Positions 23,861 through 60,335 of a stretch of DNA of 64,000 nt are shown one piece after another. The notes under the pieces were generated by a model. The model had not been told where the DNA came from. It did no database searches and saw only the letters and a program-made list of their open reading frames with translations. The stretch is from NCBI RefSeq assembly GCF_900088125.1, contig NZ_FLQT01000003.1:1549071-1613070 (forward strand), in the 5' to 3' direction. Position numbers and translations under genes: made by a program. Positions within the stretch are counted from its first letter, which is position 1. Each line of letters begins with the position of its first letter. Origin of the DNA: Peptoniphilus pacaensis. Lineage in GTDB: Bacteria > Bacillota > Clostridia > Tissierellales > Peptoniphilaceae.

Positions 23861-23884
23861 AACCGCCGTCGGGCGGTTTTTTTG
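23861..23884 (+). terminator. Terminator of the efp operon
   Basis: AACCGCC / GTCG / GGCGGTT at 23861-23878 followed by seven T. Confidence 0.9.
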
Positions 23885-23944
23885 TGTATGGAGAAATCAA
23901 TCGAAACGGGACGCATCAGCGTTAAGACACAGGAGAGAGCAACC

Positions 23945-24721
23945 ATGGATAAACTAAAATCAGCCATTTACGGCCTTGCCGTCGGCGACGCCCTTGGGGT
24001 GCCCTTCGAGTTCAGAGAGCGGGGGACGTTTCGCTGCGAAGGCATGACGGGCTACGGCACGTGGAACAGGGCGCCGGGAACCTGGTCCGACGATACGAGC
24101 ATGACCCTCGCCACCTTGGACTCCATTAAAGAGGTGGGGCGCATCGATCCCCTTGATATGAAGGAGCGCTTTTGCGACTGGCTGCGTAAGGGAAAGTATA
24201 CTGCCGACGGCGACACCTTTGACGTGGGCACGACGACGCGCATGGCCTTGGACAGAGGAAACGGCTTAGACGACTATTATTCTAACGGAAACGGATCCCT
24301 AATGCGTATTTTGCCCCTGGCATTTACCGATGCCACGGACGATGAGATCCGTGCGGTATCGGCTATCACCCACGCTCATAAAATTTCTACGGATGCCTGC
24401 GTCGAATACGTGCACTTGGCGCGGAAACTCATCGAGGGAAAACCGATTATTCGTGAGGAAATCAAAAACAAAAGCATGGATGAAATCAAATCCTCCGGCT
24501 TCGTCTTGCATACCTTGGAAGCGTCGATTTGGTGTTTGCTGAATACGAGCTCCTATAAAGAGGCGGTGCTTACGGCGGTGAATCTCGGCGAAGATACGGA
24601 TACCACCGCAGCCGTGGTGGGCGGCCTGGCCGGCATTGTCTACGGCTATGACAGCATCCCAGGCGATTGGATCGAGGAACTGAAAAATAAAGAGCTTATC
24701 GATGCGATTTTAAAAAAATAG
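23945..24721 (+). CDS. ADP-ribosylglycohydrolase family protein
   Basis: A 258-residue DraG-type hydrolase. The binuclear metal-site motifs are present: GLAVGDALGVPFEF, TWSDDTSMTLAT, SNGNGSLMRILPLAF and NLGEDTDTTAAVVGGLAG. It removes ADP-ribose from proteins or related conjugates. The ATG at 23945 follows AGGAGAGAG; an upstream in-frame start at 23882 lies within the preceding terminator and is rejected. It was the last host gene before a terminator hairpin now split by an insertion sequence. Confidence 0.88.
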   Translation: MDKLKSAIYGLAVGDALGVPFEFRERGTFRCEGMTGYGTWNRAPGTWSDDTSMTLATLDSIKEVGRIDPLDMKERFCDWLRKGKYTADGDTFDVGTTTRMALDRGNGLDDYYSNGNGSLMRILPLAFTDATDDEIRAVSAITHAHKISTDACVEYVHLARKLIEGKPIIREEIKNKSMDEIKSSGFVLHTLEASIWCLLNTSSYKEAVLTAVNLGEDTDTTAAVVGGLAGIVYGYDSIPGDWIEELKNKELIDAILKK

Positions 24722-24801: not shown

Positions 24802-25386
24802 ATGGCAAAATACAGTTATGAATTAAAAAGGAAAATCGTCGAAGAATACCTGTTCGGAGAGTCAAGCTATCCCATCTTAGAAGATAAATATCAAATTGAT
24901 GAATCACTGATCAGACGTTGGGTCAATAATTACAAACAATTTGGCGATGAAGGGTTAATGCGCTCTAGAAATAAACGTGAGTACAGTGTAGAGTTTAAGT
25001 TAGAAGCCATTACACGTTACGAAACGAGCGAATGCAGTTACCAACAATTGGCCCTTGAACTTGGTTTGACGAATCCGTCCATGATCGCCAAATGGCACAG
25101 TCAGTATCGAAAGGAGGGCATGGAGGGGCTGCGAACACATAAGCGAGGGAGACCTGTGACGAAGAAAGACGCCTGCAATCAACCACCGAAGTCTGCAACT
25201 AAGAAGGAGCCTCTTGATGCATCCTCGCGTGAGGCATTGGAAAACCGCATCAAAGAATTAGAGGCGGAGAACCGGAAACTCACCATTCAAAAGCTATACC
25301 TGGAGGAGCTAAGGAGTTTGGTGAGGGAAGAAAAAATGAGAAAAAGGCGAGGATCGTCGCCAAACTCCGAGAACAATTCCAACTAA
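24802..25386 (+). CDS. IS3-family transposase OrfA (helix-turn-helix protein)
   Basis: A 194-residue protein with two helix-turn-helix repeats: one at residues 5-50 (YELKRKIVEEYLFGESSYPI) and one at 60-110 (YSVEFKLEAITRYETSECSY), then a Lys/Glu-rich coiled-coil (about 140-180) used for OrfA-OrfB contacts. It binds the terminal repeats. A-rich tracts at 25331-25336 and 25341-25345 near the 3' end are where a -1 shift would join it to OrfB. Confidence 0.88.
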   Translation: MAKYSYELKRKIVEEYLFGESSYPILEDKYQIDESLIRRWVNNYKQFGDEGLMRSRNKREYSVEFKLEAITRYETSECSYQQLALELGLTNPSMIAKWHSQYRKEGMEGLRTHKRGRPVTKKDACNQPPKSATKKEPLDASSREALENRIKELEAENRKLTIQKLYLEELRSLVREEKMRKRRGSSPNSENNSN

Positions 25387-25427
25387 CAGAGATACTCGCT
25401 GCCATCAACTTTCCCAAATCCACCTTT

Positions 25428-26228
25428 ATGTATTGGCAGAAAAAGTGGAGCGAAGAAGACAAAGACCAAGCGTTAAAAGACGAGATCCTCGCCATTCGGC
25501 GCGAACACAAAGACTACGGCTACCGCCGGATCCATCTGGAGCTGAAGAACCGGGGTTGGGCGGTAAACAAAAAGAAAGTTCAACGACTGGTTCAAGACAT
25601 GGGCCTTCAAGTCCGTGCCTATGGCAGGAAATACAAGAAGTACAACTCTTACAAAGGCGTCGTCGGTAAGATCAAGAAGAATCGAATCAATCGACGCTTC
25701 AACACCTGTATCCCCTACCAAAAAATTACCACCGACACTACAGAATTCAAATACTACGTCGAAGATAAAGCGGGGAAACTTCAAACAAAGAAACTCTACC
25801 TCGATCCATACATGGACATGTACAATCTGGAAATCATTAGCTACGTCCTATCCGATCAGCCCAACGGCGTCACCATGCTACGAGGCTTAGAAAAAGCCAT
25901 CGAACGAACCAACACCTGTCCCTATCGCCGCACCTTCCACTCCGATCGCGGTTGGGGCTACCAAATGACCGCCTATCAAGCCATGTTAGAAGAACACCAC
26001 ATCTTTCAAAGCATGTCGAGAAAAGGTAACTGCTACGACAACGCACCCATGGAAAACTTCTTCAGTGTACTGAAAAGAGAAATCTACGACGGTTACGTCT
26101 ACCGAAGCCGGCAGAAACTTGTGCGGGCGATCGAAGACTTTATCCACTACTATAACAACGACCGAATCAAAGAAAAATTAGGAGGGCTAAGTCCAAAGCA
26201 ATACCGTGAACGAATGAAAACCGCTTAG
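25428..26228 (+). CDS. IS3-family transposase OrfB (DDE integrase core)
   Basis: The 266 residues from the first ATG contain the rve domain: first Asp in KITTDTTEFKYY, second in TFHSDRGWGYQ, and Glu in NAPMENFFSVLKREIY, plus the HTH_21 segment. The same frame is open upstream to at least 25320 and encodes family-typical residues (KARIVAKLREQFQLTEILAA), in the -1 frame relative to orfA. The real product is therefore most likely an OrfAB fusion made by programmed -1 frameshifting near 25331-25346, with the ATG product as a shorter form. Confidence 0.88.
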   Translation: MYWQKKWSEEDKDQALKDEILAIRREHKDYGYRRIHLELKNRGWAVNKKKVQRLVQDMGLQVRAYGRKYKKYNSYKGVVGKIKKNRINRRFNTCIPYQKITTDTTEFKYYVEDKAGKLQTKKLYLDPYMDMYNLEIISYVLSDQPNGVTMLRGLEKAIERTNTCPYRRTFHSDRGWGYQMTAYQAMLEEHHIFQSMSRKGNCYDNAPMENFFSVLKREIYDGYVYRSRQKLVRAIEDFIHYYNNDRIKEKLGGLSPKQYRERMKTA

Positions 26229-26408: not shown

Positions 26409-27503
26409 TTATAAGATGCTATACGTATCTATCACATCAATCTTTTCATCGTCGAAGACTTCTGTGTAGATGTTTAGGGTGGTGGTCACCTTTGCATGGC
26501 CTAATAATTGAGAAACGGCTTTAATGTTGGCGCCTTGAGCGATGAGGCGTGTCGCGAAGGTGTGGCGCAGCATGTGTGGCGTCAGTTTGCGTTCGATGCC
26601 TGCTTCCTCGACCAGGCGATCAAAGTATCTCCTAAAGTTGGAGAGAGTCCTGAAGTTGAACGTTGATGAGTAGAAGACAAGGTTCAGGACGTTGTTTTCA
26701 GGGTCGTTGTTTCGTTCTCTTTCTTTTAGTATAGCATAGGCATCGCCTGAAAGGGGAACGGTACGAACGCTGTTGTCTGTTTTTGGATAGGGTTGTAGGC
26801 GAGGATTGCCGTGTTCTTCGACCATGATCTGAGCGACGGCGAGGGTGCGATTTTTTAGATCGACGTTGTCCCAGGTAAGCCCTGTCGCTTCGCCGATGCG
26901 TAGGCCGGTGGTGAGCAGGAATAAAATGATATTGGCATACTCTTCCCGGCGGCATCGATCGACAAGTTTGTCTTGTTCCTCTTTGGTGAGGGCGCGAACA
27001 GCGTTGTTCCTGGTTTTCGAGAGTTCAGTTCCTATTGCCGGGTTTTTGTCTATAAGGCCAATGTCCACTGCTTTTTTCAAGCAGGAGGTGATTCGAGACT
27101 TGATTGCTCGGGCCAAGGCGCGGGAGTGGTTTTTATCGATTGTATTGATGTGGGTTTGTAATTGAATGGTCGTAAGGTCTCTTAGTCGGAAGTCGCCAAG
27201 AGGTTCAATGAAGTGGTTGCGCAGTTGGTGTTCGTAGGTAAGGTAGGTGGTGCTGTTTATATTCGGTCGTTTGTATTCTTCAAGCCATATGTCTGCCCAT
27301 TCGGCGACGGTTACTTCAGATTCGTCGAATCCCCGAAGTTGGTCCAGCTTTTGATTGACTTGTTCTCTGGCTTCTTTTTTTGTCTTGCCGGTGCCGCTTA
27401 TGCGAACACGTTCTCCTTGGCGGTTTGTGCCGGCGCTTATGGTCAGCTGCCAGTTTCCGGATGCGAGTTTTCTCCAGGTGCCTTCGCCATAGCCTCTTGC
27501 CAT
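26409..27503 (-). CDS. int: Phage tyrosine-family site-specific integrase
   Basis: A 364-residue integrase: arm-binding domain (MARGYGEGTWRKLASGNWQL), core-binding SAM-like domain (about 60-150) and catalytic domain with the first Arg in TTGLRIGEATGLTW, the HxxR box in LTPHMLRHTFATR, then LLGHAKVTTTLNIY with His and the nucleophilic Tyr. It integrates and excises the prophage at the 19-bp core next to its 3' end. AAGGAGA precedes the ATG on the leftward strand. Confidence 0.95.
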   Translation of the reverse strand: MARGYGEGTWRKLASGNWQLTISAGTNRQGERVRISGTGKTKKEAREQVNQKLDQLRGFDESEVTVAEWADIWLEEYKRPNINSTTYLTYEHQLRNHFIEPLGDFRLRDLTTIQLQTHINTIDKNHSRALARAIKSRITSCLKKAVDIGLIDKNPAIGTELSKTRNNAVRALTKEEQDKLVDRCRREEYANIILFLLTTGLRIGEATGLTWDNVDLKNRTLAVAQIMVEEHGNPRLQPYPKTDNSVRTVPLSGDAYAILKERERNNDPENNVLNLVFYSSTFNFRTLSNFRRYFDRLVEEAGIERKLTPHMLRHTFATRLIAQGANIKAVSQLLGHAKVTTTLNIYTEVFDDEKIDVIDTYSIL

Positions 27504-28159: not shown

Positions 28160-29179
28160 TCATTTCTCAATAATATACAGTGGTTTATCAAATATATCCT
28201 CAATTTCAAGGTCGAAGTCAAAAGAAGGCACACCAATACTTTCTAAAATTTTATACTTATCATTTTTATAATTTGATAAGTGAGTGGCTATAGCCAGTCG
28301 ACTACCGACAGATAATTTTATGCATGCTGAGCTATTTCCGAGAACAGATAAACCAAAGATGAGTGTATATAAGTCATTTTTTCCGAGGCCGAGTCTATAA
28401 TTGACTGGATCGATCCCCATTCTCTTATGAAGGAGGTCGTTATATCGAATATTAGATTTATCGGGTCGATAATTATATACTCTACCTGAGTGAGCCGACC
28501 GGTTTCTAAATTTGAAACATAGCGTTAGGACGTCTGAAAACAAGTCTTTGACCGCTTCATTAACAACATTAATTTCAACAACTTCTAAGGGCAGGTCTAG
28601 CATGATACTAATAATTCTATTTTTGAGCTCAGCCTTTTGGAGCTTGTAAAAATGCATCATATTTCCTAGCGTTGCTCCCTTAAAGAGTATCCAAGGAGGT
28701 GTGTTTTTATGATGCATGCGATAATGTTGAAAGGGTTCCACATCATCGTTTATGATTTTATGAAATTTTATGAAGGATGAATCAATATCCCAGTATTTAG
28801 AACCATCTTTCCGTGTGTGTATTTTTCCGCTTTTATAATTGGATTTGATTAAGTATTTGTCTTGATCTGAGGTAAAAGTCTCAGCTATAACGTAGCTCAT
28901 AGCGCTTTTGAGCATAATTTCAAATTCTAATGTCGCATTGAGAACAGATTGTTGAAGCTTTCTGTCCATTTCGTAAATTGAAAATAGTTGCTCAAATGTT
29001 GCGTCTTCAAAATACTTGTCCGGATTTGTTGCTTCGAGTAAATAATCTTTATAACCATTAACAATTTCGTAATAACCGAAAGAGCGCAAGTGCTCTCTAG
29101 CAGCTTTTTCATTGAGAAATTTTAAATTTCTATCTTTTAAAATTTTTATCTGTTGATCGATTGTAGTGAATGGCTTCAT
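28160..29179 (-). CDS. abiF: Abi_2 family HEPN protein (AbiF/AbiD-like abortive infection)
   Basis: A 339-residue protein of the Abi_2 family. It has family landmarks LRSFGYYEIVNGYKDYLLE near 31-49, PPWILFKGATLGNMMHFY at 161-178 and the HEPN ribonuclease motif R-x4-H as RNRSAH at 225-230. HEPN Abi proteins cleave RNA and stop growth of infected cells; AbiF relatives have been proposed as ancestors of Cas13 and as toxins paired with a small RNA. The start at 29179 (MKPFTTID) has GGAGG upstream. The gene is visibly richer in A+T than its neighbours, a sign of cargo. It is preceded by a promoter-hairpins-terminator RNA. Naming it abiF rather than abiD is a judgement from family style. Confidence 0.82.
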   Translation of the reverse strand: MKPFTTIDQQIKILKDRNLKFLNEKAAREHLRSFGYYEIVNGYKDYLLEATNPDKYFEDATFEQLFSIYEMDRKLQQSVLNATLEFEIMLKSAMSYVIAETFTSDQDKYLIKSNYKSGKIHTRKDGSKYWDIDSSFIKFHKIINDDVEPFQHYRMHHKNTPPWILFKGATLGNMMHFYKLQKAELKNRIISIMLDLPLEVVEINVVNEAVKDLFSDVLTLCFKFRNRSAHSGRVYNYRPDKSNIRYNDLLHKRMGIDPVNYRLGLGKNDLYTLIFGLSVLGNSSACIKLSVGSRLAIATHLSNYKNDKYKILESIGVPSFDFDLEIEDIFDKPLYIIEK

Positions 29180-29194
29180 TCTTGTTCCTCCACA

Positions 29195-29262
29195 TAACAC
29201 AAAAGGGCTTCCGAAGTGGAAGCCCTAAAGGTCGGACAGAAACCCTGTCCAGTCATATTGTT
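29195..29262 (-). ncRNA. Structured small RNA upstream of abiF (abiF-motif-like)
   Basis: On the minus strand, an RNA starting near 29262 would contain three hairpins. They are CATATT/AAC/AATATG, then GGACAG/GGTTT/CTGTCC (29250-29234), then GGGCTTCC/ACTTC/GGAAGCCC (29225-29205) followed by TTTTGTGTT. The last is a perfect 8-bp terminator stem ending 26 bases before the abiF start. A conserved structured RNA lying upstream of abiF genes has been described from comparative genomics; this layout agrees with it. It could be an RNA antitoxin for the HEPN protein, an attenuator, or both. Confidence 0.7.
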
Positions 29263-38234: not shown

Positions 38235-38429
38235 ATGCCAAGAAAAAAATACAAAGAAGTTGTTGAAAAACTACTCGCAAATGGTTGGGAACATGTAAGG
38301 ACTAATGGTTCACATGAAATTTACCGAAATAAAAAAACCGGTGTAAGTGTACCTATAAAATGCACCTCTAAAGAGATTCCGGCCGGTACTGTGAGTAGCA
38401 TTCAACGGATAACAGGGCTCAAATTTTAA
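38235..38429 (+). CDS. hicA: HicA-type mRNA interferase toxin
   Basis: A 64-residue double-stranded RNA-binding-fold toxin: KKYKEVVEKLLANGWEHVRT, catalytic His in TNGSHEIYRN, and PIKCTSKEIPAGTVSSI. It cleaves mRNA unless bound by HicB. The toxin precedes the antitoxin, the common order for this family. Confidence 0.92.
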   Translation: MPRKKYKEVVEKLLANGWEHVRTNGSHEIYRNKKTGVSVPIKCTSKEIPAGTVSSIQRITGLKF

Positions 38430-38440
38430 CCCTGTTATCC
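38407..38440 (+). repeat. Perfect 11-bp inverted repeat across the hicA stop
   Basis: GGATAACAGGG at 38407-38417 and CCCTGTTATCC at 38430-38440 enclose the hicA stop codon. There is no T run, so it is not an ordinary terminator; it may tune the toxin/antitoxin ratio or mRNA stability. Confidence 0.6.
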
Positions 38441-38489
38441 AAACACCTTCTTATGTAAAATATTAAATGTAAATGAGAAGGAGGAACTT

Positions 38490-38900
38490 ATGAAGGATCG
38501 CTATATTTTTCCTGCCATCATTTCATTTAGCGAAGATGAAGGGATATATGATATAAGATTTCCTGACATAAGTAATGGATTTACTTTTGCAGAGAGTGAA
38601 GACGAAATTATGGAGTCGGCTAAAGAAGTTCTAGAGCTCTGTTTATATGATCTTGAAGAAAATGGGAATGAAATTCCTTCACCAACGAGTTTTTCGAGTT
38701 TATTGAACAAAGGACTATCCGTTGTTTTAGTAGAAGTGTGGATGCCCTTAGTAAGGGATAAGTTTCAAAATAAATCGGTAAAAAAGACACTGACTATACC
38801 TAAATGGCTTAACGATGCAGCCCAAGAGTACAACATCAATTTTTCTCAGTTGTTGCAAACAGCCATTAAAAATTATATAGGCATTGATACAAAGAGGTAG
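38490..38900 (+). CDS. hicB: HicB-type antitoxin
   Basis: A 136-residue antitoxin: partly degraded RNase H-like N-domain (YIFPAIISFSEDEGIYDIRF; AKEVLELCLYDLEENGNEIP) and a C-terminal ribbon-helix-helix (KKTLTIPKWLNDAAQEYNIN) for DNA binding. It neutralises HicA and likely represses the promoter at 38145. GAAGGAGGAA precedes the ATG. Confidence 0.9.
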   Translation: MKDRYIFPAIISFSEDEGIYDIRFPDISNGFTFAESEDEIMESAKEVLELCLYDLEENGNEIPSPTSFSSLLNKGLSVVLVEVWMPLVRDKFQNKSVKKTLTIPKWLNDAAQEYNINFSQLLQTAIKNYIGIDTKR

Positions 38901-39171: not shown

Positions 39172-39609
39172 ATAGGATTATCGGACAAGCAAAAGGCGGT
39201 GGCGGATGAATATATCGTCACGCTGGACAAGACGAAAAGTTATTTGAAGTACTACAAGAGCGTAAAGAAAAAGGAAACGGCCTACGCTGCGGCGAGTCGT
39301 CTCTTCGAAAAGCCGGCGATGAAGGCCTACATCGAAGAGCGGATGAAAGAACTGGATGAAGAGACGATTGCGGAGCAGCGAGAGGTGCTGCGGTTTCTCT
39401 CGGCGGTGATGCGAGGCGAGACGAAGGAAGCGGTGTTGATCGGACAGGGCAATGGCCGGCAGTCCATCGGCGACATGGAGGTCTCTATGAAGGACCGTAT
39501 CCGCGCCGGGGAGCTCTTAGGCAAGCGCTACGGCCTATGGACGGAGAAGGTGGACTTGGACGGCGGTGTGGCCATTACCTTTATCGAGGATGTGCCGCTG
39601 GATGATTGA
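39172..39609 (+). CDS. terS: Terminase small subunit
   Basis: A protein of about 145 residues recognising the phage genome for packaging. The family-typical opening LSDKQKAVADEYIVTLDKTK begins at 39178, ahead of the first conventional start (GTG 39199). The only candidate with a ribosome site (AGGGGGTGAT, 39159-39168) is an ATA at 39172, so an AUA start is proposed; otherwise the protein begins at 39199 without part of its DNA-binding helix. The C-terminal half (MKDRIRAGELLGKRYGLWTE) is the usual oligomerisation part. Confidence 0.78.
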   Translation: MGLSDKQKAVADEYIVTLDKTKSYLKYYKSVKKKETAYAAASRLFEKPAMKAYIEERMKELDEETIAEQREVLRFLSAVMRGETKEAVLIGQGNGRQSIGDMEVSMKDRIRAGELLGKRYGLWTEKVDLDGGVAITFIEDVPLDD

Positions 39610-40876
39610 GAAGCGATTGAGCATGATGAAGGCTCTGGGAAAGGGCTATAACCGCTTTTACCATAACCGACAATTTTACAGAGTCGTCAAGGGGAGCCGG
39701 GGTTCGAAGAAGTCGAAGACAGCGGCTCTTTGTTATATTCACGATATTTTAAAGTATCCCTGGGCCAATCTGTTGGTGGTGCGGAAGTTTTCCAATACGA
39801 ACAAGCAGTCCACCTACACGGATTTAAAGTGGGCGGCCAATCGGCTGGGGGTTTACGATAAGTTTAAATTCAATGAATCCATGCCGGAGATCACGGTGAA
39901 GCGAACGGGACAAAAGATTTTGTTCCGCGGTATGGACGATCCTTTAAAGATCACATCCATTTCGGTGGATGTGGGCATCCTCTGTTGGGCTTGGTTCGAA
40001 GAGGCCTATCAGTTGGATTCCATGGATGCTTTCGATACGACGGTGGAATCGATTCGGGGATCCTACGACAGCCCGGATTTCTACAAGCAAATCACCTTAA
40101 CCTTTAACCCGTGGTCGGAAAATCACTGGTTGAAGCGGGAGTTTTTCAACGAAGACACCAGGCGGAAGGACGTCTTTAGCATGACGACTACCTTTCGGCT
40201 GAATGAATGGCTGGACGAGCAGGACCGGAAGCGGTACACGGATCTTTACCGCACCAATCCCCGGAGGGCGAAGATTGTCTGCGACGGCGACTGGGGCGTG
40301 GCGGAAGGCTTGGTCTATGAGAATGTGGAGTTTCGGCCCATTGCCGATGAAGAAATCGATATGAAGAAGTTTAAGCTTTTGGTCGGTCTGGACTTCGGCT
40401 TTAAGCATGATCCGACGGCTTTAATCGTGTCTTGGCTGGATGAAGAGAATAAGCGAATTTACGTCGTGGATGAACACTACGAGCAGGGGATGACCACTTC
40501 GGATATTGCCGCCATGATACGGCGAAAAGGCTATGGCAAGTCGACGATTATCGCCGACTGTGCCGAGGGCCGACTGATTTATGAGCTGAAGCGGGAGCAC
40601 GACATTCAGAGGATTCGAGAATCAAGGAAGGGGAAGGACAGTGTCAATTCAGGCATTAGCAAGCTTCAGGATTACCGGATTATTTGTGGCGACAGATGCG
40701 TCAACGCCAAGGAAGAGTTCTACTCCTACGCCTATAAAAAAGACAAGGTGTCGGGGAAGTATACCAATCAACCGGAGGACAAGGACAATCACTTAATGGA
40801 CGCGCTGCGTTACAGCTTGCAGTGCGTGGAGACGGGAAAACTGAAGACGATGTCGAAGAAGGCCTTAGGTCTTTAG
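39602..40876 (+). CDS. terL: Terminase large subunit
   Basis: A 424-residue packaging motor of the PBSX/SPP1 (Terminase_3) type. N-terminal ATPase with Walker A-like KGSRGSKKSKTAALC and Walker B-like CWAWFEEAYQLD; C-terminal RNase H-like nuclease with GLDFGFKHDPTAL and later acidic motifs (IADCAEGR; DNHLMDALRY). It overlaps terS by 8 bases. This type usually packages by headful from a pac site. Confidence 0.93.
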   Translation: MIEKRLSMMKALGKGYNRFYHNRQFYRVVKGSRGSKKSKTAALCYIHDILKYPWANLLVVRKFSNTNKQSTYTDLKWAANRLGVYDKFKFNESMPEITVKRTGQKILFRGMDDPLKITSISVDVGILCWAWFEEAYQLDSMDAFDTTVESIRGSYDSPDFYKQITLTFNPWSENHWLKREFFNEDTRRKDVFSMTTTFRLNEWLDEQDRKRYTDLYRTNPRRAKIVCDGDWGVAEGLVYENVEFRPIADEEIDMKKFKLLVGLDFGFKHDPTALIVSWLDEENKRIYVVDEHYEQGMTTSDIAAMIRRKGYGKSTIIADCAEGRLIYELKREHDIQRIRESRKGKDSVNSGISKLQDYRIICGDRCVNAKEEFYSYAYKKDKVSGKYTNQPEDKDNHLMDALRYSLQCVETGKLKTMSKKALGL

Positions 40877-40886
40877 GAGGTGAAGT

Positions 40887-42290
40887 ATGGATAGCAATAT
40901 TACGGAGCACTTTGAGCTGCCGAAGACGGTGTATTTACCGCCGGAGACGGAGGTCACCGAGGATCTGATTAAGGCCCTGGTGAAGATGAAAGAGAAGGAA
41001 GTGGAGCGGTTCCACGTGCTTCAGGACTACTACGAGGGCAAGTCGAAGATTACGGAGCGGCAAAAGGACAGCCACAAAGCCAATAATAAATTGGCCCTGG
41101 ACTATCCGTCTTATATCGTGGATGTTCTCTTAGGCATGTTTGTGGGCAAGCCTATTTCCTACACAGTGGCGGAAGAAAACAAAGAGATCATGGCAGCGGT
41201 TCAAGACGTCTTCGATCTTAACGACGAGCAGGACGAGAACACGGAACTGGCGAAGATGTGCGGCATTAAGGGCCGAGGCTATGAAATTGTCTACTTAGAC
41301 GAGGAAGGAAGCGTCCGCTTTAACGAAGCGGAGCCGGAGAATGTGGTCATGGTTTACGATAACCGCATTAAGCCGGAGCCACTGTTCTGTCTTTATATTC
41401 GGGATCATGTGACCGTGGACAATTTAGAAGCGGATAAAAAGGACAAGTTCCTCACGCTATACACAAAAGATTCAGTGAAAGAGTACCTCATGGCGGGCGG
41501 CGATTTATCCCTTATGGAAGAATCGGCCAATCTCTTCGGGGAAATCCCGGTGATTGAGTTTCTGAACAACGACGAAGGAATCGGCGATTTCGAGCGGACG
41601 CTGTCGTTGATCGACGCCTTAAACCTGGCGCAGTCCGACACGGCCAACGACTTCCAGGAATTTACGGATGCTCTCCTGGTGCTCTTCGGGATGCCGCAGA
41701 CCGATTCCGACGACGTGAACCAAATGATGGAGGATCGGGTCCTGCTATTAGACAAAAGCGGGGACAACGGGCAAGGGGCCCAATGGCTTATTAAAGAGAT
41801 CAACGACACGGCCCTTGAAAACTACAAGAACCGCCTGGATGCGGACATTCATAAGTTCGCCAAGGTGCCCAACATGAGCGACGAGAACTTCGCCGGGAAT
41901 GTCTCCGGGGAGTCCATGAAGTACAAGCTCTTCGCCACGGATCAAATTATCAGCCAAAAGCAGCGGAAGTTTAAGACGGCCCTGCAAAAACGGTTGAAGT
42001 TGATCCTGGCCATTTTGAATATCAAGGGCTCCGCCGATTTCGATTATCGGGATATTTCTCTGGTCTTTAACGACAACAAGCCTTACAACGAGCTGGACAA
42101 TATCAACACAGTGAAATCGGCTTTAGATGCCGGACTTTCCAAGACCTATGCTTATTCCAAGCTGCGGGATATGGACGACATTCAGGAAGAGTTGGAGCGG
42201 CAAGCTCAGGAAGTGGACGCTTATGTGGAGTCCTTTAAAAGGGAGCTAGACGATGGACAAGAAGTTCCTGAAGATTCAACAGTCGTATGA
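40887..42290 (+). CDS. Portal protein (SPP1 Gp6-like)
   Basis: A 467-residue portal of the SPP1 Gp6 family (HVLQDYYEGKSKITERQKDS; NKLALDYPSYIVDVLLGMFV; LINDALNLAQ-like stretch at SLIDALNLAQSDTANDF; MSDENFAGNVSGESMKYKLF). It forms the dodecameric ring through which DNA enters. Lies between terL and the minor head protein in the SPP1 order. Confidence 0.92.
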   Translation: MDSNITEHFELPKTVYLPPETEVTEDLIKALVKMKEKEVERFHVLQDYYEGKSKITERQKDSHKANNKLALDYPSYIVDVLLGMFVGKPISYTVAEENKEIMAAVQDVFDLNDEQDENTELAKMCGIKGRGYEIVYLDEEGSVRFNEAEPENVVMVYDNRIKPEPLFCLYIRDHVTVDNLEADKKDKFLTLYTKDSVKEYLMAGGDLSLMEESANLFGEIPVIEFLNNDEGIGDFERTLSLIDALNLAQSDTANDFQEFTDALLVLFGMPQTDSDDVNQMMEDRVLLLDKSGDNGQGAQWLIKEINDTALENYKNRLDADIHKFAKVPNMSDENFAGNVSGESMKYKLFATDQIISQKQRKFKTALQKRLKLILAILNIKGSADFDYRDISLVFNDNKPYNELDNINTVKSALDAGLSKTYAYSKLRDMDDIQEELERQAQEVDAYVESFKRELDDGQEVPEDSTVV

Positions 42291-43731
42291 GCGGCTGATC
42301 AAGAAGAAGGAAAAGGGCATCGTTCAAAACTACGGAAGATCCTATAAGCGACTGAGAAAAGAAGTGGAGAAGATCTATGACGATGCCGAAAAAGATGGTG
42401 AGTTGAACTATTCCCGGGAGGACGTGGCCAAGCTGGACAAGAAGACGGCGGATATTATGCTGGACTTGTACCGGACGAACACAGGCGCCATTGAAAACAC
42501 CTTGAAGCAGATCGCCCAAGATACCAGAGAGGCATCGGCGGCGGACAGCATCGTCCCCGTAAAAAAGACCTTCGATCCGAGCCGCGTCATTAACAAGGAA
42601 GTGGCGGGCAGAATATGGACGGAGCGAATTGACCACTATGGCGACAATTTTGTCTATGACGTTCACTCCATTATTAAGGCGGGCTTGGAGCGTGGAGATA
42701 CTTATACCACCATGGGGAAACATCTTCGGGATCGCTTTGGCCGCGATGTAGGCAATGTGGCCAGAATCGCCCGAACGGAAGGGGCCCGAGTGCTGGAAGA
42801 CACCAAGTTCGACACCTTCAGCGAGATCAATAAGAACTCCAAGATTAAGGTGATGAAGGTGTGGCGCACCATGCAAGACGAGGCCGTTCGTTCTACTCAC
42901 CAAGCCATGGAAGGGGTAGAGGTGGAGCTGGAAGAAGAATTCGTACTTCCCAGCGGCGCCACTTGTCTTTATCCAAAGGACACGGGCTTTCCGGAAGAGG
43001 ATATTAATTGCCGCTGCTATTGTGAGTATAAGCCGGTGATCGATGATGGTACTAACGAGGAAAACGGGTATAATACAAACGGGATCTCAGGTGTAAGCAC
43101 TTTCGATGAAATGGCGAGTTACTTCAAAACAAAGAATATTGTCATGGATGACGAGGTCAGAGATCTCGACTTCAAAGCAGTAAAAAGGACCCTTACTGCA
43201 ATTGAGGAAATTGCCGAGCAATATCCGGATGCTTATAATCGAGTGGAGAGAGTAAGCACATCAAGAGAAGGGGTCATGTCTTGTAGCGGTAGAAAAATCA
43301 ACTTTAATCCGAAATATTACAAAGATACAAGTTATTTAGAAAACCGGTGTAAGGAATTGTCCCTTTCCGGCTGGTGGCATAAGAGCTCCAGTCTTGAATC
43401 CCTAGGTGTCCATGAGTTTGGTCATGCTGTCAACTGGGACCTGATCGCGAAGAATGAACACTATGACTATGATTTTCAAAGAATCCTCGATTGGAATGAT
43501 GGCGAAACTGCCAAGAGGATAGTCTCGAAGGCATGTAAAGACATTAAGAAGACGCCTTACGGTAAGGGAAAGGTCAATGCCACGTTGAGAAAAGCTCAAT
43601 CCACATATGGAGCATCTGAACCAAGAGAGGCCATTGCAGAATCTTTTGCCGATGTTTACGCCAATAAGGAGAACGCGAACCCGCTTTCCGTAAGGATTAT
43701 AGAGATTATAAACGATATGTTAAAAGGATAA
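42253..43731 (+). CDS. SPP1 Gp7-like minor head protein fused to a zinc metalloprotease domain
   Basis: A 492-residue two-part protein. Residues 1-262 are a phage head morphogenesis protein (Mu F / SPP1 Gp7 type) ending in the cysteine motif INCRCYCEYKPV. Residues about 275-492 are unrelated: they carry HEFGHAVN (zinc His387, His391, catalytic Glu388) and EAIAESFADVYANK with a likely third ligand Glu463, a gluzincin pattern. The second half is also more A+T-rich. Gp7-like proteins enter the capsid with DNA and can be ejected, so the protease may be delivered into the host cell or process the head. It overlaps the portal by 38 bases. Confidence 0.85.
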   Translation: MDKKFLKIQQSYERLIKKKEKGIVQNYGRSYKRLRKEVEKIYDDAEKDGELNYSREDVAKLDKKTADIMLDLYRTNTGAIENTLKQIAQDTREASAADSIVPVKKTFDPSRVINKEVAGRIWTERIDHYGDNFVYDVHSIIKAGLERGDTYTTMGKHLRDRFGRDVGNVARIARTEGARVLEDTKFDTFSEINKNSKIKVMKVWRTMQDEAVRSTHQAMEGVEVELEEEFVLPSGATCLYPKDTGFPEEDINCRCYCEYKPVIDDGTNEENGYNTNGISGVSTFDEMASYFKTKNIVMDDEVRDLDFKAVKRTLTAIEEIAEQYPDAYNRVERVSTSREGVMSCSGRKINFNPKYYKDTSYLENRCKELSLSGWWHKSSSLESLGVHEFGHAVNWDLIAKNEHYDYDFQRILDWNDGETAKRIVSKACKDIKKTPYGKGKVNATLRKAQSTYGASEPREAIAESFADVYANKENANPLSVRIIEIINDMLKG

Positions 43732-43742
43732 GGGGGAAGAAA

Positions 43743-43919
43743 ATGCTTGAACCTAAATTCGTGCCCTATTTGACGGAAAAGAAGGCGAAATCAGAACATG
43801 GATATAGCTATATCGTCTTGAAGGAAGACACGCCAAAAGATCTAAGGGATGAATACATGGAGATCGTGGCGGAGCAAGACGAAAGAATAAAAAACGGCGA
43901 AATGATTATGATGTATTAA
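43743..43919 (+). CDS. Small protein (58 aa) after the metalloprotease fusion
   Basis: ATG 43743 to TAA 43919: MLEPKFVPYLTEKKAKSEHG, SYIVLKEDTPKDLRDEYMEI, ending EMIMMY. GGGGGAAGAAA provides a weak ribosome site 12 bp after the fusion gene. It is not a standard head gene and could be an inhibitor of the protease domain, by position only. Confidence 0.5.
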   Translation: MLEPKFVPYLTEKKAKSEHGYSYIVLKEDTPKDLRDEYMEIVAEQDERIKNGEMIMMY

Positions 43920-44085: not shown

Positions 44086-44661
44086 ATGGATAAAGATGCA
44101 GTTAATGTAAACCAAGAAGCGACATTGGATGCGCAAGAGGCCGAAGCGAAACAAGCGGTAGAAGGTCAAGACCACCAAAAAGAAGAGAACAAAGGCGGCG
44201 ACAAGACTTTTACTCAGGATGAAGTGACCGCCATCGTGGAAGCGAGATTGGCCAGAGAGCGCAGCAAAGCGGAGAAAGAGACGGAAAAGAAGATCGAATC
44301 GGCCATTCAGGAGGCGGAGCGACTGGCGAAGCTGTCGGAAGATGAGCGGAAGCAGGAAGCCGAAGAAGCGAAAGATAAAGAGCTGGAAGCGGCGAAGGCG
44401 GAACTTGCCAGGGTTTACCTGGAAAGGGACACCATGAGCCGGCTGGCGGAGGAGAAGATTCCGTCTGAATTCAAAGACTTCTTAATGGGATCGGATGCTG
44501 AATCGACGAATGAAAACATTAAGGCCTTTAAGCCAATTTTTGAGTCCATGATTCAAAAGCAGGTGGAAGAACGTTTAAAAGGGAAAACGCCGACGGTGGC
44601 CGCTCAGGCTTCGAAGGCGGATGTATGGTCGACATTGAAAGATAAGTACAAGAAAGGATGA
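44086..44661 (+). CDS. Phage capsid scaffolding protein (DUF4355)
   Basis: A 191-residue, highly charged, mostly coiled-coil protein (FTQDEVTAIVEARLARERSK; EEAKDKELEAAKAELARVYL) with the DUF4355 pattern of scaffolds located just before major capsid genes. It guides capsid assembly and leaves the head. AAAGGATGAAGAATT precedes the ATG. Confidence 0.85.
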   Translation: MDKDAVNVNQEATLDAQEAEAKQAVEGQDHQKEENKGGDKTFTQDEVTAIVEARLARERSKAEKETEKKIESAIQEAERLAKLSEDERKQEAEEAKDKELEAAKAELARVYLERDTMSRLAEEKIPSEFKDFLMGSDAESTNENIKAFKPIFESMIQKQVEERLKGKTPTVAAQASKADVWSTLKDKYKKG

Positions 44662-44665
44662 GACG

Positions 44666-45538
44666 ATGGCAATTAAGATTTTTACAAAACAATACGCAGG
44701 ACTTTTAGCAAATGTCTTTGAGAAGAAACAGAACTTTTTAAACACTTTCGGCGGCAAGCTGCAAGTGCAAGACGGGATCACTAACAAGGATTCCTTTATC
44801 GACTTGAAGATTTCCGACACCGATGTGGTCATTCAAAAGTACGACATGGGCGAAAACGTGGCCTTCGGTACCGGAACGGGAACTTCCAATCGCTTTGGTC
44901 AAAGAAAAGAAATCAAGTCCGTTGATAAGCAAGTGCCTTACGAAGAACCCCTGGCCATTCACGAAGGCGTGGACAACTTCACGGTGAACGACAATGCGGA
45001 AGAGGTCATCCAAGAAAGAGCGGCACTGCACGCTGAAGCTTGGGTAGAGCAAATGAACGGCTTCCTGTCCAAGGCTTTGTCCGATGCAGCCCACAAAACC
45101 CTTACCGGTAAACTGACTGAGGAAGACGTGGTTAAGACATTCAACGAAGCATCCAAGATCTTCGTGAATAACAAGGTCTCCAAGGATGTGGCGCGCGTAG
45201 CCTATGTGACCTCTGATGTTTATAACTTTATTGTGGATGCAAAATTGGTTTCCACAGGCAAGGGATCCACCGTCAACATCGACGACAACGAATACCTGAA
45301 GTTCAAGGGCTTTATCCTGGATGAGCTTGCCGACGAATACTTCCAAAAAGGCGAAAACATCATCTTTGCGGCAGACAATGTTGGCGTTGCCGGCGTGGGC
45401 ATTGAAATCTATCGTATGTTGGATTCCGAAGACTTCGCAGGCGTGGCCATTCAGTCCGCAGGCAAGTTCGGCAAATACATTCCCGAGAAAAACCAAAAGG
45501 CCGTCGTAAAGGCTAAATTAGCCGCCGTCACCGCTTAA
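44666..45538 (+). CDS. Major capsid protein
   Basis: A 290-residue capsid protein (IFTKQYAGLLANVFEKKQNF; VPYEEPLAIHEGVDNFTVND; IIFAADNVGVAGVGIEIYRM). Position right after the scaffold and the codon use of a highly expressed gene fit. It probably has an HK97-type fold. Confidence 0.9.
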   Translation: MAIKIFTKQYAGLLANVFEKKQNFLNTFGGKLQVQDGITNKDSFIDLKISDTDVVIQKYDMGENVAFGTGTGTSNRFGQRKEIKSVDKQVPYEEPLAIHEGVDNFTVNDNAEEVIQERAALHAEAWVEQMNGFLSKALSDAAHKTLTGKLTEEDVVKTFNEASKIFVNNKVSKDVARVAYVTSDVYNFIVDAKLVSTGKGSTVNIDDNEYLKFKGFILDELADEYFQKGENIIFAADNVGVAGVGIEIYRMLDSEDFAGVAIQSAGKFGKYIPEKNQKAVVKAKLAAVTA

Positions 45539-59016: not shown

Positions 59017-59033
59017 GATTGGAGGTGATGAAA

Positions 59034-60335
59034 ATGGTTAAGATATTACTAGATCCCGGCCACGGTGGCGGCCGTGCCTATAACCGCGGCTTTAAGCAGG
59101 TGGAGAATCTCCCTTATTGCAATGAGGGGGATTGTAATTTCCTTTATGCCAGAGATTACCTAAAGCCGGCACTTGAGTCTTATGGCTTCCAAGTGGGCAT
59201 GACGAAAAATACCATCGGCCCGGACATTCCATTGAAGACACGTGGAGCCATGGGTAAGGGTTATGACCTACTCATTTCGTGCCACTCAAACGCCTGTGGA
59301 GGTTCCGTTCGAGGCGTAGAGATATGGGATAGCACGAATCCACGTGAACAAATAACAGCACTGACAGATATGTTATGCAAGTCCATAGCTGCGACGTTAG
59401 GGATCCTCAACAGGGGGACAAAACGGCGAAAAAACAGACATGGTTCGAACTTTTATGGAATATTGCGCCATGGGTTGGCGAAGCACAATTTTATCATTGA
59501 GCACGCCTTCCATGATAATCTGCAAGACGCCACGGTTTACAGAAAGAATCTGAAGCCTTTAGCCGAAGCAGTTGCGAGGACATTGGCCGCCTATTATGGG
59601 CTAACGAAGACCGATGTTGAAACACCGAACGTGAAAGTGGAAGACCCACAATCTGATTTCATCGACATGATCGTTGAAAATATCAAAGGTAAACAACTTC
59701 GAATTCTTCCATCCATTACTATTGCCCAAGCTATTTTAGAATCCGGGTGGGGAAAATCAGAATTGGCGAAGAATGCCCATAACTTATTTGGTATTAAAGC
59801 AAGTAAAGATTGGGCAGGAAAAACCTATGCCAAGAAAACGAAAGAACAAAAACCGACAGGCGAGATCTACGAAATTGTCGCCGACTTTAGAGCCTATGAC
59901 AGCTATGCTGATTCCATAGTGGATCATGACAAGTTTTTTGTATCTACTCCATGGAGAGAAAAAAACTATGCTGCGGTTCTTAATGCGAAGGAATACAAGA
60001 CTCAAGCAAAGGCGTTGCAGTCTTGCGGCTACGCCACGGCGCTGGATTACGGAAAGCAGCTGATCGGGCTCATCGAGCGGCTAGGGTTGCAGCAATACGA
60101 TAAAGGAGTTGAGAAGTACGTGACCAGAGATATTACAAAGCCCTCGGACTGGGCGAAAGATGCGTGGGATTGGGGTCAAGAGCAAGGAATTTGCGACGGA
60201 ACCCGCCCCGGTGATGATATAACAAGGGAAGAGTTTATGGCGATTCTTTACCGCTACGACCAAAAGAAGGGGGACAACCATGCAAAGTGCGATAGTACTG
60301 ACAAGCGCGACACTCGGTTTGACACAGGCCTTTAA
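59034..60335 (+). CDS. Endolysin: N-acetylmuramoyl-L-alanine amidase + glucosaminidase + SLH-like end
   Basis: A 433-residue modular lysin. Residues 1-180 are an Amidase_3 domain (KILLDPGHGGGRAYNRGF with zinc His; HSNACGGSVRGVEIW; NFIIEHAFHDN with Glu and His). Residues 200-345 are a glucosaminidase (IAQAILESGWGKSELAKNAH with catalytic Glu; NLFGIKASKDWAGKTY). Residues 358-420 (DITKPSDWAKDAWDWGQEQG; DDITREEFMAILYRYDQKKG) resemble an S-layer-homology repeat for wall binding. Two cutting sites in peptidoglycan give strong lysis. GGAGGTGATG supports the start at 59034. Confidence 0.9.
   Translation: MVKILLDPGHGGGRAYNRGFKQVENLPYCNEGDCNFLYARDYLKPALESYGFQVGMTKNTIGPDIPLKTRGAMGKGYDLLISCHSNACGGSVRGVEIWDSTNPREQITALTDMLCKSIAATLGILNRGTKRRKNRHGSNFYGILRHGLAKHNFIIEHAFHDNLQDATVYRKNLKPLAEAVARTLAAYYGLTKTDVETPNVKVEDPQSDFIDMIVENIKGKQLRILPSITIAQAILESGWGKSELAKNAHNLFGIKASKDWAGKTYAKKTKEQKPTGEIYEIVADFRAYDSYADSIVDHDKFFVSTPWREKNYAAVLNAKEYKTQAKALQSCGYATALDYGKQLIGLIERLGLQQYDKGVEKYVTRDITKPSDWAKDAWDWGQEQGICDGTRPGDDITREEFMAILYRYDQKKGDNHAKCDSTDKRDTRFDTGL

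What the first reader, a model, noticed from the sequence alone, without database searches (positions are those of the whole stretch)
42253..43919. Zinc metalloprotease domain fused to an SPP1 Gp7-like minor head protein, with a small gene behind it
The first 262 residues are a standard minor head protein; the next 220 carry HEFGHAVN and EAIAESFADVY, a complete-looking gluzincin site, in DNA of different composition. Gp7-like proteins travel with DNA in the capsid, so this could be a virion-delivered effector. The 58-aa gene at 43743 might be its inhibitor.
Basis: partly seen in the sequence, partly recalled or inferred. Interest (0 to 1): 0.75.

Follow-up and report, generated by a model that had tools for sequence, protein, structure and literature searches.

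The report
Phage-carried protease toxin with likely antidote
A prophage's minor head protein carries a zinc-protease domain at its tail end, followed by a small gene of a family that accompanies this protease in other phages, which fits a toxin delivered with phage DNA and an antidote for the lysogen, although no activity has been measured.

Summary
ORF 42253-43731 is a MuF minor head protein (PF04233) with a 230-residue C-terminal zinc-metallopeptidase domain, followed 11 bases on by a 58-aa gene. The domain's model (pLDDT 94) is closest to M34 peptidases: anthrax lethal-factor catalytic domain Z 12.6, Pro-Pro endopeptidases Z about 8. It is a mobile cassette: relatives sit behind MuF, Phage_min_cap2 or the eCIS core domain, or stand alone. 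None of 46 sampled loci of other MuF proteins has it, so it is not a standard head part. The 58-aa protein belongs to a small family without a Pfam match above cut-off. A member lies beside the peptidase in 15 of 15 non-redundant loci with a minor-head carrier (one carrier call below cut-off) and beside 0 of 30 MuF proteins with other extensions. Members also occur away from the protease, one in a sister species next to the prophage site. Best reading: a MuF polymorphic toxin (known kind; metallopeptidase versions counted in 2017) with an M34-like toxin domain and a putative immunity family. Delivery, proteolysis, toxicity and inhibition are inferred, not shown.

The parts
42253..43731 (+). 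MuF minor head protein with C-terminal M34-like metallopeptidase domain (492 aa)
42253..43038 (+). Carrier part, residues 1-262 (PF04233 at 137-256)
43039..43731 (+). Toxin-type domain, residues 263-492 (AlphaFold2 pLDDT 94.4, pTM 0.89)
43411..43425 (+). HEFGH zinc-binding motif, residues 387-391
43606..43641 (+). Tyr452 ... Glu459 ... Glu463, the conserved Y-x6-E part of the site
   Evidence: ligand roles recalled from M34 structures
43732..43742 (+). Purine-rich, ribosome-binding-like stretch before the 58-aa gene
   Evidence: direct reading
43743..43919 (+). 58-aa putative immunity protein (predicted beta-hairpin plus helix, pLDDT 82.7, pTM 0.63)
40887..42290 (+). Portal protein, directly upstream (its end overlaps the MuF start)
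39566..40876 (+). Terminase large subunit
44086..44661 (+). Scaffolding protein
44666..45538 (+). Major head protein
26409..27503 (-). Prophage integrase (temperate phage)

Best explanation
This is a MuF polymorphic toxin of a temperate contractile-tailed phage. Residues 1-262 are the head protein that should bind the portal and leave with the DNA (known of SPP1 gp7-type proteins; inferred here). Residues 263-492 are an M34-like zinc metallopeptidase that would be carried into the newly infected cell and cut a protein there (target unknown). The 58-aa gene directly downstream most likely encodes its immunity protein, which keeps the lysogen and the phage-producing cell from being cut. Shown: domain architecture, predicted fold, conserved zinc-site residues, mobility of the domain among carriers, and conserved and specific adjacency of the small family. 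Inferred: virion packaging and delivery, proteolysis, a harmful effect, and inhibition by the 58-aa protein.
For: MuF domain, in place after the portal of a prophage with integrase, terminase, scaffold, head, tail-sheath and tape-measure genes. Confident model; best folds lethal-factor catalytic domain Z 12.6 with 170 aligned, rmsd 3.3, and PPEP-3/PPEP-1/PPEP-2 Z 8.3-7.9. Histidines and glutamates of the zinc site invariant in the 25 aligned members, the Tyr in 90% or more. The same domain sits behind MuF, Phage_min_cap2 and eCIS_core carriers and was found in 0 of 46 sampled loci of other MuF proteins. Small family adjacent in 15 of 15 non-redundant loci with a minor-head carrier, by profiles from which seeds at least 50% identical to any ORF of the locus were removed, against 0 of 30 MuF places with other extensions of 100 residues or more. 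Distances of peptidase domain and small protein correlate, Mantel r 0.55, 3 of 5000 permutations, 12 loci. A copy 81% identical lies in a sister species of the genus, next to an ADP-ribosylglycohydrolase and the prophage site. Published MuF toxins Apk2 and Bxa have adjacent immunity genes, and Bxa's include an ADP-ribosyl hydrolase (PMC12226406, PMC11699363, passages read).
Against: No activity data. Sequence-level membership is weak: Pfam ATLF 14.9 bits against a cut-off of 27.4, no Foldseek PDB hit under E 0.001, profile hits to PPEP-1 only E 0.16-0.37, behind a ribosomal protein at 0.031. The window's 58-aa protein is a divergent family member (E 2.4e-4 with related seeds left out). Of 17 non-redundant stand-alone loci, 14 lack the small gene, so it is not required by every peptidase of the family. 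One family member follows a MuF protein with a DUF3626 end and a further 142-aa gene (L032). The excess of other MuF small genes near family members that lack the protease (4 of 12 loci against 0 of 10 controls) is not significant (Fisher p 0.096).
Confidence: 0.7

Rival explanations
1. The protease is a delivered takeover or counter-defence enzyme rather than a growth-inhibiting toxin: it cleaves a host factor at the start of infection, and the small protein only keeps it quiet during head assembly. (This overlaps with the best explanation; the odds do not add to one.)
For: Jamet et al. suggest that moderately toxic MuF domains such as peptidases could steer the lysis-lysogeny choice or resist host defence (PMC5576092, passages). 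The architecture and the neighbour gene fit equally well. Stand-alone phage versions mostly lack the small gene (14 of 17).
Against: Family members in genomes where no protease was found make most sense if cells gain from neutralising it.
Confidence: 0.35
2. The domain is a head-maturation protease that processes scaffold or head proteins, and the small gene is an assembly factor.
For: Some PHROG hits carry the label 'head maturation protease' (phrog_17987 for 4 of 25 members; phrog_595 for the full protein). The gene lies in the head module.
Against: 0 of 46 sampled MuF loci have the domain. A related domain follows eCIS core domains (L038, L041), which are not heads. Other extensions are followed by other small genes.
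Confidence: 0.08
3. The 58-aa family is a general small companion of phage effectors (loading factor or chaperone) rather than the inhibitor of this protease.
For: A member follows MuF-DUF3626 plus a 142-aa gene in L032. Members occur away from any protease.
Against: None of 30 sampled MuF proteins with other extensions has it. A loading factor would not be expected beyond the prophage end in a sister species (L031).
Confidence: 0.15

Closest known systems
MuF polymorphic toxins of temperate phages (Jamet et al. 2017, PMC5576092; Apk2, PMC12226406; Bxa, PMC11699363; passages read)
   Same: N-terminal MuF domain, gene directly after the portal gene, variable C-terminal enzyme domain, small gene directly downstream, temperate phage. 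[quoted passage not shown] it also counts PF06152 (Phage_min_cap2) as a MuF domain.
   Different: The members described as studied are ADP-ribosyltransferases and alarmone synthetases. No M34-type member with a defined immunity family was seen in the passages read; the survey's supplementary tables were not readable here.
M34 metallopeptidases: anthrax lethal-factor catalytic domain and Pro-Pro endopeptidases PPEP-1/2/3
   Same: Predicted fold, HExxH, downstream Tyr and Glu seven positions apart (PPEP-1 E143/Y178 and PPEP-3 E153/Y189 from PDB titles; the third zinc ligand is recalled).
   Different: 12-18% identity in the listed rows, longer stretch between HExxH and the Tyr, below Pfam ATLF's cut-off. 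Fused to a phage head protein.
Tox-ALFMetallopeptidase of polymorphic toxins (Zhang et al. 2012, PMC3482391, passages)
   Same: Lethal-factor-like peptidase as a toxin domain; the paper's table lists it for PVC and T2SS delivery, and eCIS_core-linked relatives of our domain were found (L038, L041).
   Different: The table row seen does not list MuF for this domain and gives Imm-SuFu as its immunity protein; the 58-aa family has no Pfam match above cut-off.
Lethal-factor-like metallopeptidase domain of N4-type virion RNA polymerases and polyvalent proteins (PMC5512222, passages)
   Same: HEXXH domain of phage proteins that enter the cell with the DNA, linked by the authors to lethal factor by profile comparison.
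   Different: Part of very large multidomain proteins, not a MuF fusion with a small gene behind it in the passages seen; not compared with our domain here.
Phage proteins already named 'Lethal factor', and phrog_7153 'zinc-finger protease'
   Same: Best predicted viral structure match is 'Lethal factor (Fragment)' of Siphoviridae sp. ctwnj8, E 2.5e-19, TM 0.95; a MuF-like protein of Mycobacterium phage Rope follows at E 8.5e-6. phrog_7153 matches 11 of 25 aligned members, best E 1e-8.
   Different: Automatic names without tested function; the window's own domain matches phrog_4415 'peptidase' (E 0.0027), not phrog_7153, at the limit used.
phrog_20195 (unknown function)
   Same: Three of four small-family members given to PHROGs match it, E 3.3e-5, 7.5e-4 and 0.04.
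   Different: The window's 58-aa protein did not match it; PHROGs gives no function.

Membership tests
MuF polymorphic toxin | N-terminal MuF domain (PF04233) | tested here: met
   57.7 bits against cut-off 29.6
MuF polymorphic toxin | Gene directly downstream of the portal gene of a temperate phage | tested here: met
   Portal 40887-42290 overlaps the MuF start; integrase 26409-27503
MuF polymorphic toxin | C-terminal enzyme domain that also occurs on other carriers | tested here: met
   Phage_min_cap2 fusions L035/L050, L052, L082, L039; eCIS_core fusions L038, L041
MuF polymorphic toxin | Small gene directly downstream | tested here: met
   58-aa gene 11 bases after the stop codon; family adjacent in 15 of 15 non-redundant loci with a minor-head carrier
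MuF polymorphic toxin | Toxicity neutralised by the neighbouring gene | not testable with these tools
   needs expression experiments
M34 metallopeptidase (lethal factor / PPEP) | Fold | tested here: met
   Model pLDDT 94.4; lethal factor Z 12.6, 170 aligned, rmsd 3.3; PPEP-3 Z 8.3. No Foldseek PDB hit under E 0.001, though the first 31 rows are all M34 proteins
M34 metallopeptidase (lethal factor / PPEP) | HExxH plus downstream Tyr and Glu | tested here: met
   HExxH and Glu invariant, Tyr in 90% or more of the 25 aligned members; the pattern itself is recalled
M34 metallopeptidase (lethal factor / PPEP) | Pfam ATLF curated cut-off | tested here: not met
   14.9 bits against 27.4; hence called M34-like, not a Pfam ATLF member
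M34 metallopeptidase (lethal factor / PPEP) | Zinc-dependent proteolysis | not testable with these tools
   needs assay
SPP1 gp7 family TIGR01641 | NCBIfam curated cut-off | tested here: not met
   32.3 bits against 39.65
Known immunity or inhibitor families (for the 58-aa protein) | Match to a Pfam or NCBIfam model above cut-off | tested here: not met
   Best Pfam DUF5512 13.6 bits against 27; no NCBIfam family; PADLOC was not searched

The most novel reading that the evidence does not exclude
The small family is a natural, dedicated inhibitor family for M34-type proteases, and bacteria keep copies without the protease, some beside a prophage site or behind tape-measure genes, as resident immunity against protease-bearing phages. 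The protease cassette itself moves between three delivery routes (head-protein fusion, contractile injection systems, and MGGRG-tagged stand-alone cargo).
Probability: 0.35. Interest if true: 0.7.

Novelty: new member of a known kind. Interest (0 to 1): 0.5.

Why it matters
MuF toxins are common in prophages, but the members described as studied in the passages read are ADP-ribosyltransferases and alarmone synthetases. A lethal-factor/PPEP-fold member with a tightly linked small partner gives a concrete pair to test for phage-delivered proteolysis, and a candidate small protein inhibitor for this peptidase fold. I did not search the literature on inhibitors of M34 peptidases, so no claim of being first is made.

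Tried and rejected
Matches in named phages: tblastn of the domain against 50,697 phage records gave none; the same for a stand-alone relative and for L036's small protein. The 58-aa protein matched only four records of two Streptococcus phages inside helicase genes at E 0.1-0.9, taken as chance. The first genome-contig scan with the single sequence found no relative; the scan with a four-sequence alignment found 9. Single-sequence viral scans found only the window's own prophage contig.

Rejected as chance among the 10 of 391 class genomes: G060 (phosphoglycerate mutase), G083 (no HExxH and no match to the window protein), G295 (stops inside). Two further hits (3 of 398 genomes, own included) were not inspected.

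'Universal structural part of Gp7 proteins' was rejected on 0 of 46 loci. From the 54 MuF places I left out the window itself and six partial, weak places and used 47 places on 46 loci; one of them (L180) is interrupted. Three of the 47 (L165, L176, L193) do have an HExxH in their extension but do not match the domain profile; they were not studied further.

'The 58-aa gene follows every MuF effector' was rejected. I chose the small-family seeds by eye from downstream ORFs. The adjacency test was therefore repeated with related seeds left out (which leaked a seed for L049, corrected). The limits used there (E 1e-3 for a nominal 500 sequences, -160 to +200 bases) were set after one search was seen. 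Three loci truncated inside the domain were dropped from the counts: L051 and L062 have the small gene, L063 does not.

The Mantel test used 12 of the loci with both proteins; L069 and L082 (partial domains) and near-duplicates were left out; shared ancestry of the carrier phages was not corrected for. In the comparison the 12 loci are not independent (L199, L200 and L201 come from one genus), and the controls were loci at hand: two eCIS loci, two dismissed hits (L040, L042), and L202, L203, L206, L208-L210, whose small-family hits were weak.

The tag MGGRG was followed with an unbiased scan of 61 stretches. It starts many short phage proteins of diverse kind as well as toxin-like ones, so it is not specific to toxins.

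Paper searches: MuF with polymorphic toxin and phage (20 of 22 listed), MuF / lethal factor / prophage, two of three (15 of 212 listed), MGGRG with phage (one unrelated paper), minor capsid protein with metalloprotease, prophage and immunity protein (none), Pro-Pro endopeptidase with M34 and lethal factor (none), three tag strings (none).
Full report
What is there. The window lies in a 1.85-Mb genome held in 3 contigs. It contains a prophage with integrase (26409-27503), terminase, portal, scaffold, major head protein, head-tail adaptor, tail sheath and tape measure. The ORF at 59019-60335 reads like a lysis enzyme and has a 63% identical relative in another prophage; no family search was run on it. 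ORF 42253-43731 starts inside the end of the portal gene and encodes 492 residues. Residues 137-256 match Phage_Mu_F PF04233 above its cut-off; the SPP1 gp7 model TIGR01641 matches below its cut-off. Residues 263-492 match no Pfam model above cut-off; the best is ATLF, 14.9 bits against 27.4. GC falls from 51.0% to 42.3% and third-position GC from 65.3% to 44.8% at the junction, though 25 of 151 blocks of the prophage are as AT-rich or more so. The 58-aa ORF 43743-43919 begins 11 bases after the stop codon behind a purine-rich stretch.

The domain. An alignment of the window's domain with 24 relatives has invariant H387, E388, H391, S450, E459 and E463, and Y452 in 90% or more (numbering converted to the full protein). 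AlphaFold2 with this alignment gave mean pLDDT 94.4 and pTM 0.89. Foldseek against the PDB had no hit under E 0.001, but its first 31 rows are all Pro-Pro endopeptidases or anthrax lethal factor. Structural alignment gave lethal factor Z 12.6 (170 residues, rmsd 3.3, 13% identity) and PPEP-3, PPEP-1 and PPEP-2 Z 8.3 to 7.9. Among predicted viral structures the best match is a fragment already named 'Lethal factor' from a siphovirus (E 2.5e-19, TM 0.95), and a MuF-like minor capsid protein of Mycobacterium phage Rope is also found (E 8.5e-6). A sequence profile reached PPEP-1/Zmp1 at E 0.16-0.37 only, behind a ribosomal protein at 0.031 that I take as chance. I therefore call the domain M34-like. 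The seven positions from Y452 to E459 equal the distance from PPEP-1's Tyr178 to its third zinc ligand as I recall it; Y178 and E143 as active-site positions appear in PDB titles.

Mobility. Sequence relatives of the domain were sought in viral contigs (39 of 139 candidate stretches, the window's own prophage among them), in species genomes (9 of 355) and in class-level genomes (10 of 391 with a match, own included, three dismissed). Of 8 genomes of the genus only the window's own has it. Carriers by Pfam: MuF in the window, L036, L044, L045, L047 (for L046), L048, L064, L069, L083, L084, L087; Phage_min_cap2 in L035 (for L050/L086), L052, L082 and the more distant L039; a VG15 match below cut-off in L085; eCIS_core in L038 and L041. 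Stand-alone proteins make up the other half of the non-redundant set. Conversely, of 47 MuF places on 46 loci sampled from 196 class genomes, none carries this domain. The window's MuF part has relatives with other extensions (L177, L184, L188, L154) and with hardly any (L161, L171). A constant head part with exchangeable C-terminal domains is the hallmark of MuF polymorphic toxins.

The small gene. It had looked unlinked at first: in the taxonomic family, 17 of 130 genomes gave matches, five of them clear, the window's included. Of the other four, G005 has no protease in the whole genome, and none was seen in the 19-20-kb stretches around the rest; one of these copies (L018/L034) is cut by a stop codon. 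Wider loci showed a family of small proteins (47-66 aa among the seeds) with a pattern like D-x-x-G ... G-[IL] ... D-A-P ... Y-E-E-Y directly behind the protease. To avoid circularity, for each locus the profile was rebuilt without any seed at least 50% identical to an ORF of that locus, and all ORFs of 30-260 residues in the locus were scored on both strands. Of 34 non-redundant protease loci (85% identity), 17 have the domain at residue 139 or later and 17 are stand-alone. A family member at E under 1e-3 lies next to the protease in 15 of the first 17 and 3 of the second 17 (Fisher p 9e-5). The two misses, L072 and L089, have no head-protein match, so among loci with a minor-head carrier the count is 15 of 15 (14 above Pfam's cut-off, L085 below); in one (L064) the small gene lies on the opposite strand. 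L039, outside this set, has one at E 0.014. For the window's 58-aa gene the value is 2.4e-4, the next-best ORF 2.8. Stand-alone proteases without it are mostly followed by other small ORFs. None of the 46 other MuF loci has a family member on either strand; of places with an extension of at least 100 residues, 0 of 30, although 28 of 30 are followed by some small ORF against 8 of 17 with shorter ends. That agrees with the published 89.4% of 191 against 25.5% of 952 (PMC5576092, passage). Distances between protease domains and between small proteins correlate (r 0.55, 3 of 5000 permutations reach it, 12 loci).

Copies without the protease. In G005, of the same genus, a different prophage occupies the same chromosomal site, between a YchF-like gene (name recalled) and an ADP-ribosylglycohydrolase gene (PF03747). 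It shares the integrase and early genes; its head and tail genes did not match the window's. The 58-aa homologue there (81% identical) lies beyond the integrase end, between it and the ADP-ribosylglycohydrolase. I place it outside the prophage by gene order; the attachment site was not mapped. Published Bxa immunity consists of an ADP-ribosyl hydrolase and a small blocking protein, and its authors mention polyimmunity loci (PMC11699363, passages). In class-level genomes 28 of 341 had a match to the small family at E 0.01 or better, own included; many of the weaker ones lie inside longer ORFs. Twelve loci with a family member away from the protease were compared with the small genes that follow 30 other MuF toxins: 4 of 12 hold a homologue at E under 1e-5 (L033, L204, L205, L211) against 0 of 10 control loci, suggestive but not significant (p 0.096). 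L198 and L204 lie directly behind tape-measure genes.

How it most likely works. SPP1 gp7 binds the portal and is present in one or two copies per capsid, and MuF proteins are thought to bind phage DNA (PMC5576092 and PMC12226406, passages). By analogy the 492-aa protein would sit at the portal and enter with the DNA, bringing the peptidase into the new cell. The lysogen makes the 58-aa protein from the next gene and is protected. Whether the cut harms the cell, guides lysogeny or disarms defence is open; the 2017 authors proposed the milder roles for peptidases.

Verdict. The kind is known; the member, its fold assignment and the putative immunity family are the additions. Lethal-factor-like domains in phages and in polymorphic toxins are in print, and phage proteins named 'Lethal factor' are in databases. 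A paper on an M34-type MuF toxin with such a partner did not show in the listings; the listing was partial and the 2017 supplement was not readable here, so priority is uncertain.

Noticed in passing
L049, L053-L061, L078, L080, L081, L088 (e.g. L059:3278-7087, L088:5947-8700): Of 17 non-redundant stand-alone relatives of the protease, 10 begin (or have an early second start) with MGGRG and 4 more have a close variant near the start. In several of these phages neighbouring unrelated genes begin the same way, including ADP-ribosyltransferase (PF03496) and glutamine-deamidase (PF15644) folds; without the first 15 residues, 13 such neighbours plus 3 proteases fall into 6 unrelated clusters. It looks like a shared N-terminal cargo tag. 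An unbiased scan shows it on many other short phage proteins too.
   Followed up: partly
L031 9889-10861 and window 23882-24721: An ADP-ribosylglycohydrolase gene flanks the prophage site in both species; in G005 the 58-aa homologue sits right behind it, in the window a transposase pair that reads like an IS3-type element (24802-26228, name recalled) does.
   Followed up: partly
window 38235-38900: Two small genes that look like a HicAB toxin-antitoxin pair (name recalled) are 100% and 99% identical in the other species' prophage, although the neighbouring packaging genes differ.
   Followed up: no
window 28160-29200 (-): Prophage gene matching PHROG 'abortive infection resistance protein' (E 1.9e-62).
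   Followed up: no
L038 806-3001, L041 8300-10180: eCIS core domain followed by a relative of the protease domain with large insertions; no small-family gene was detected in either locus.
   Followed up: partly
L198 4885-5501, L204 4932-5627, L205 4806-5473: Clusters of small immunity-like genes, two of them directly behind tape-measure genes; they may be polyimmunity arrays.
   Followed up: partly
L033 10296-11916: The small-family gene of G461 lies near a CRISPR-like repeat array (seen as recurring peptides in the ORFs) and a 338-aa MuF-like gene (by reading) on the other strand.
   Followed up: no
L165, L176, L193: Three other MuF proteins have an HExxH in their extension but do not match this domain's profile; they may be other metallopeptidase toxins.
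   Followed up: no
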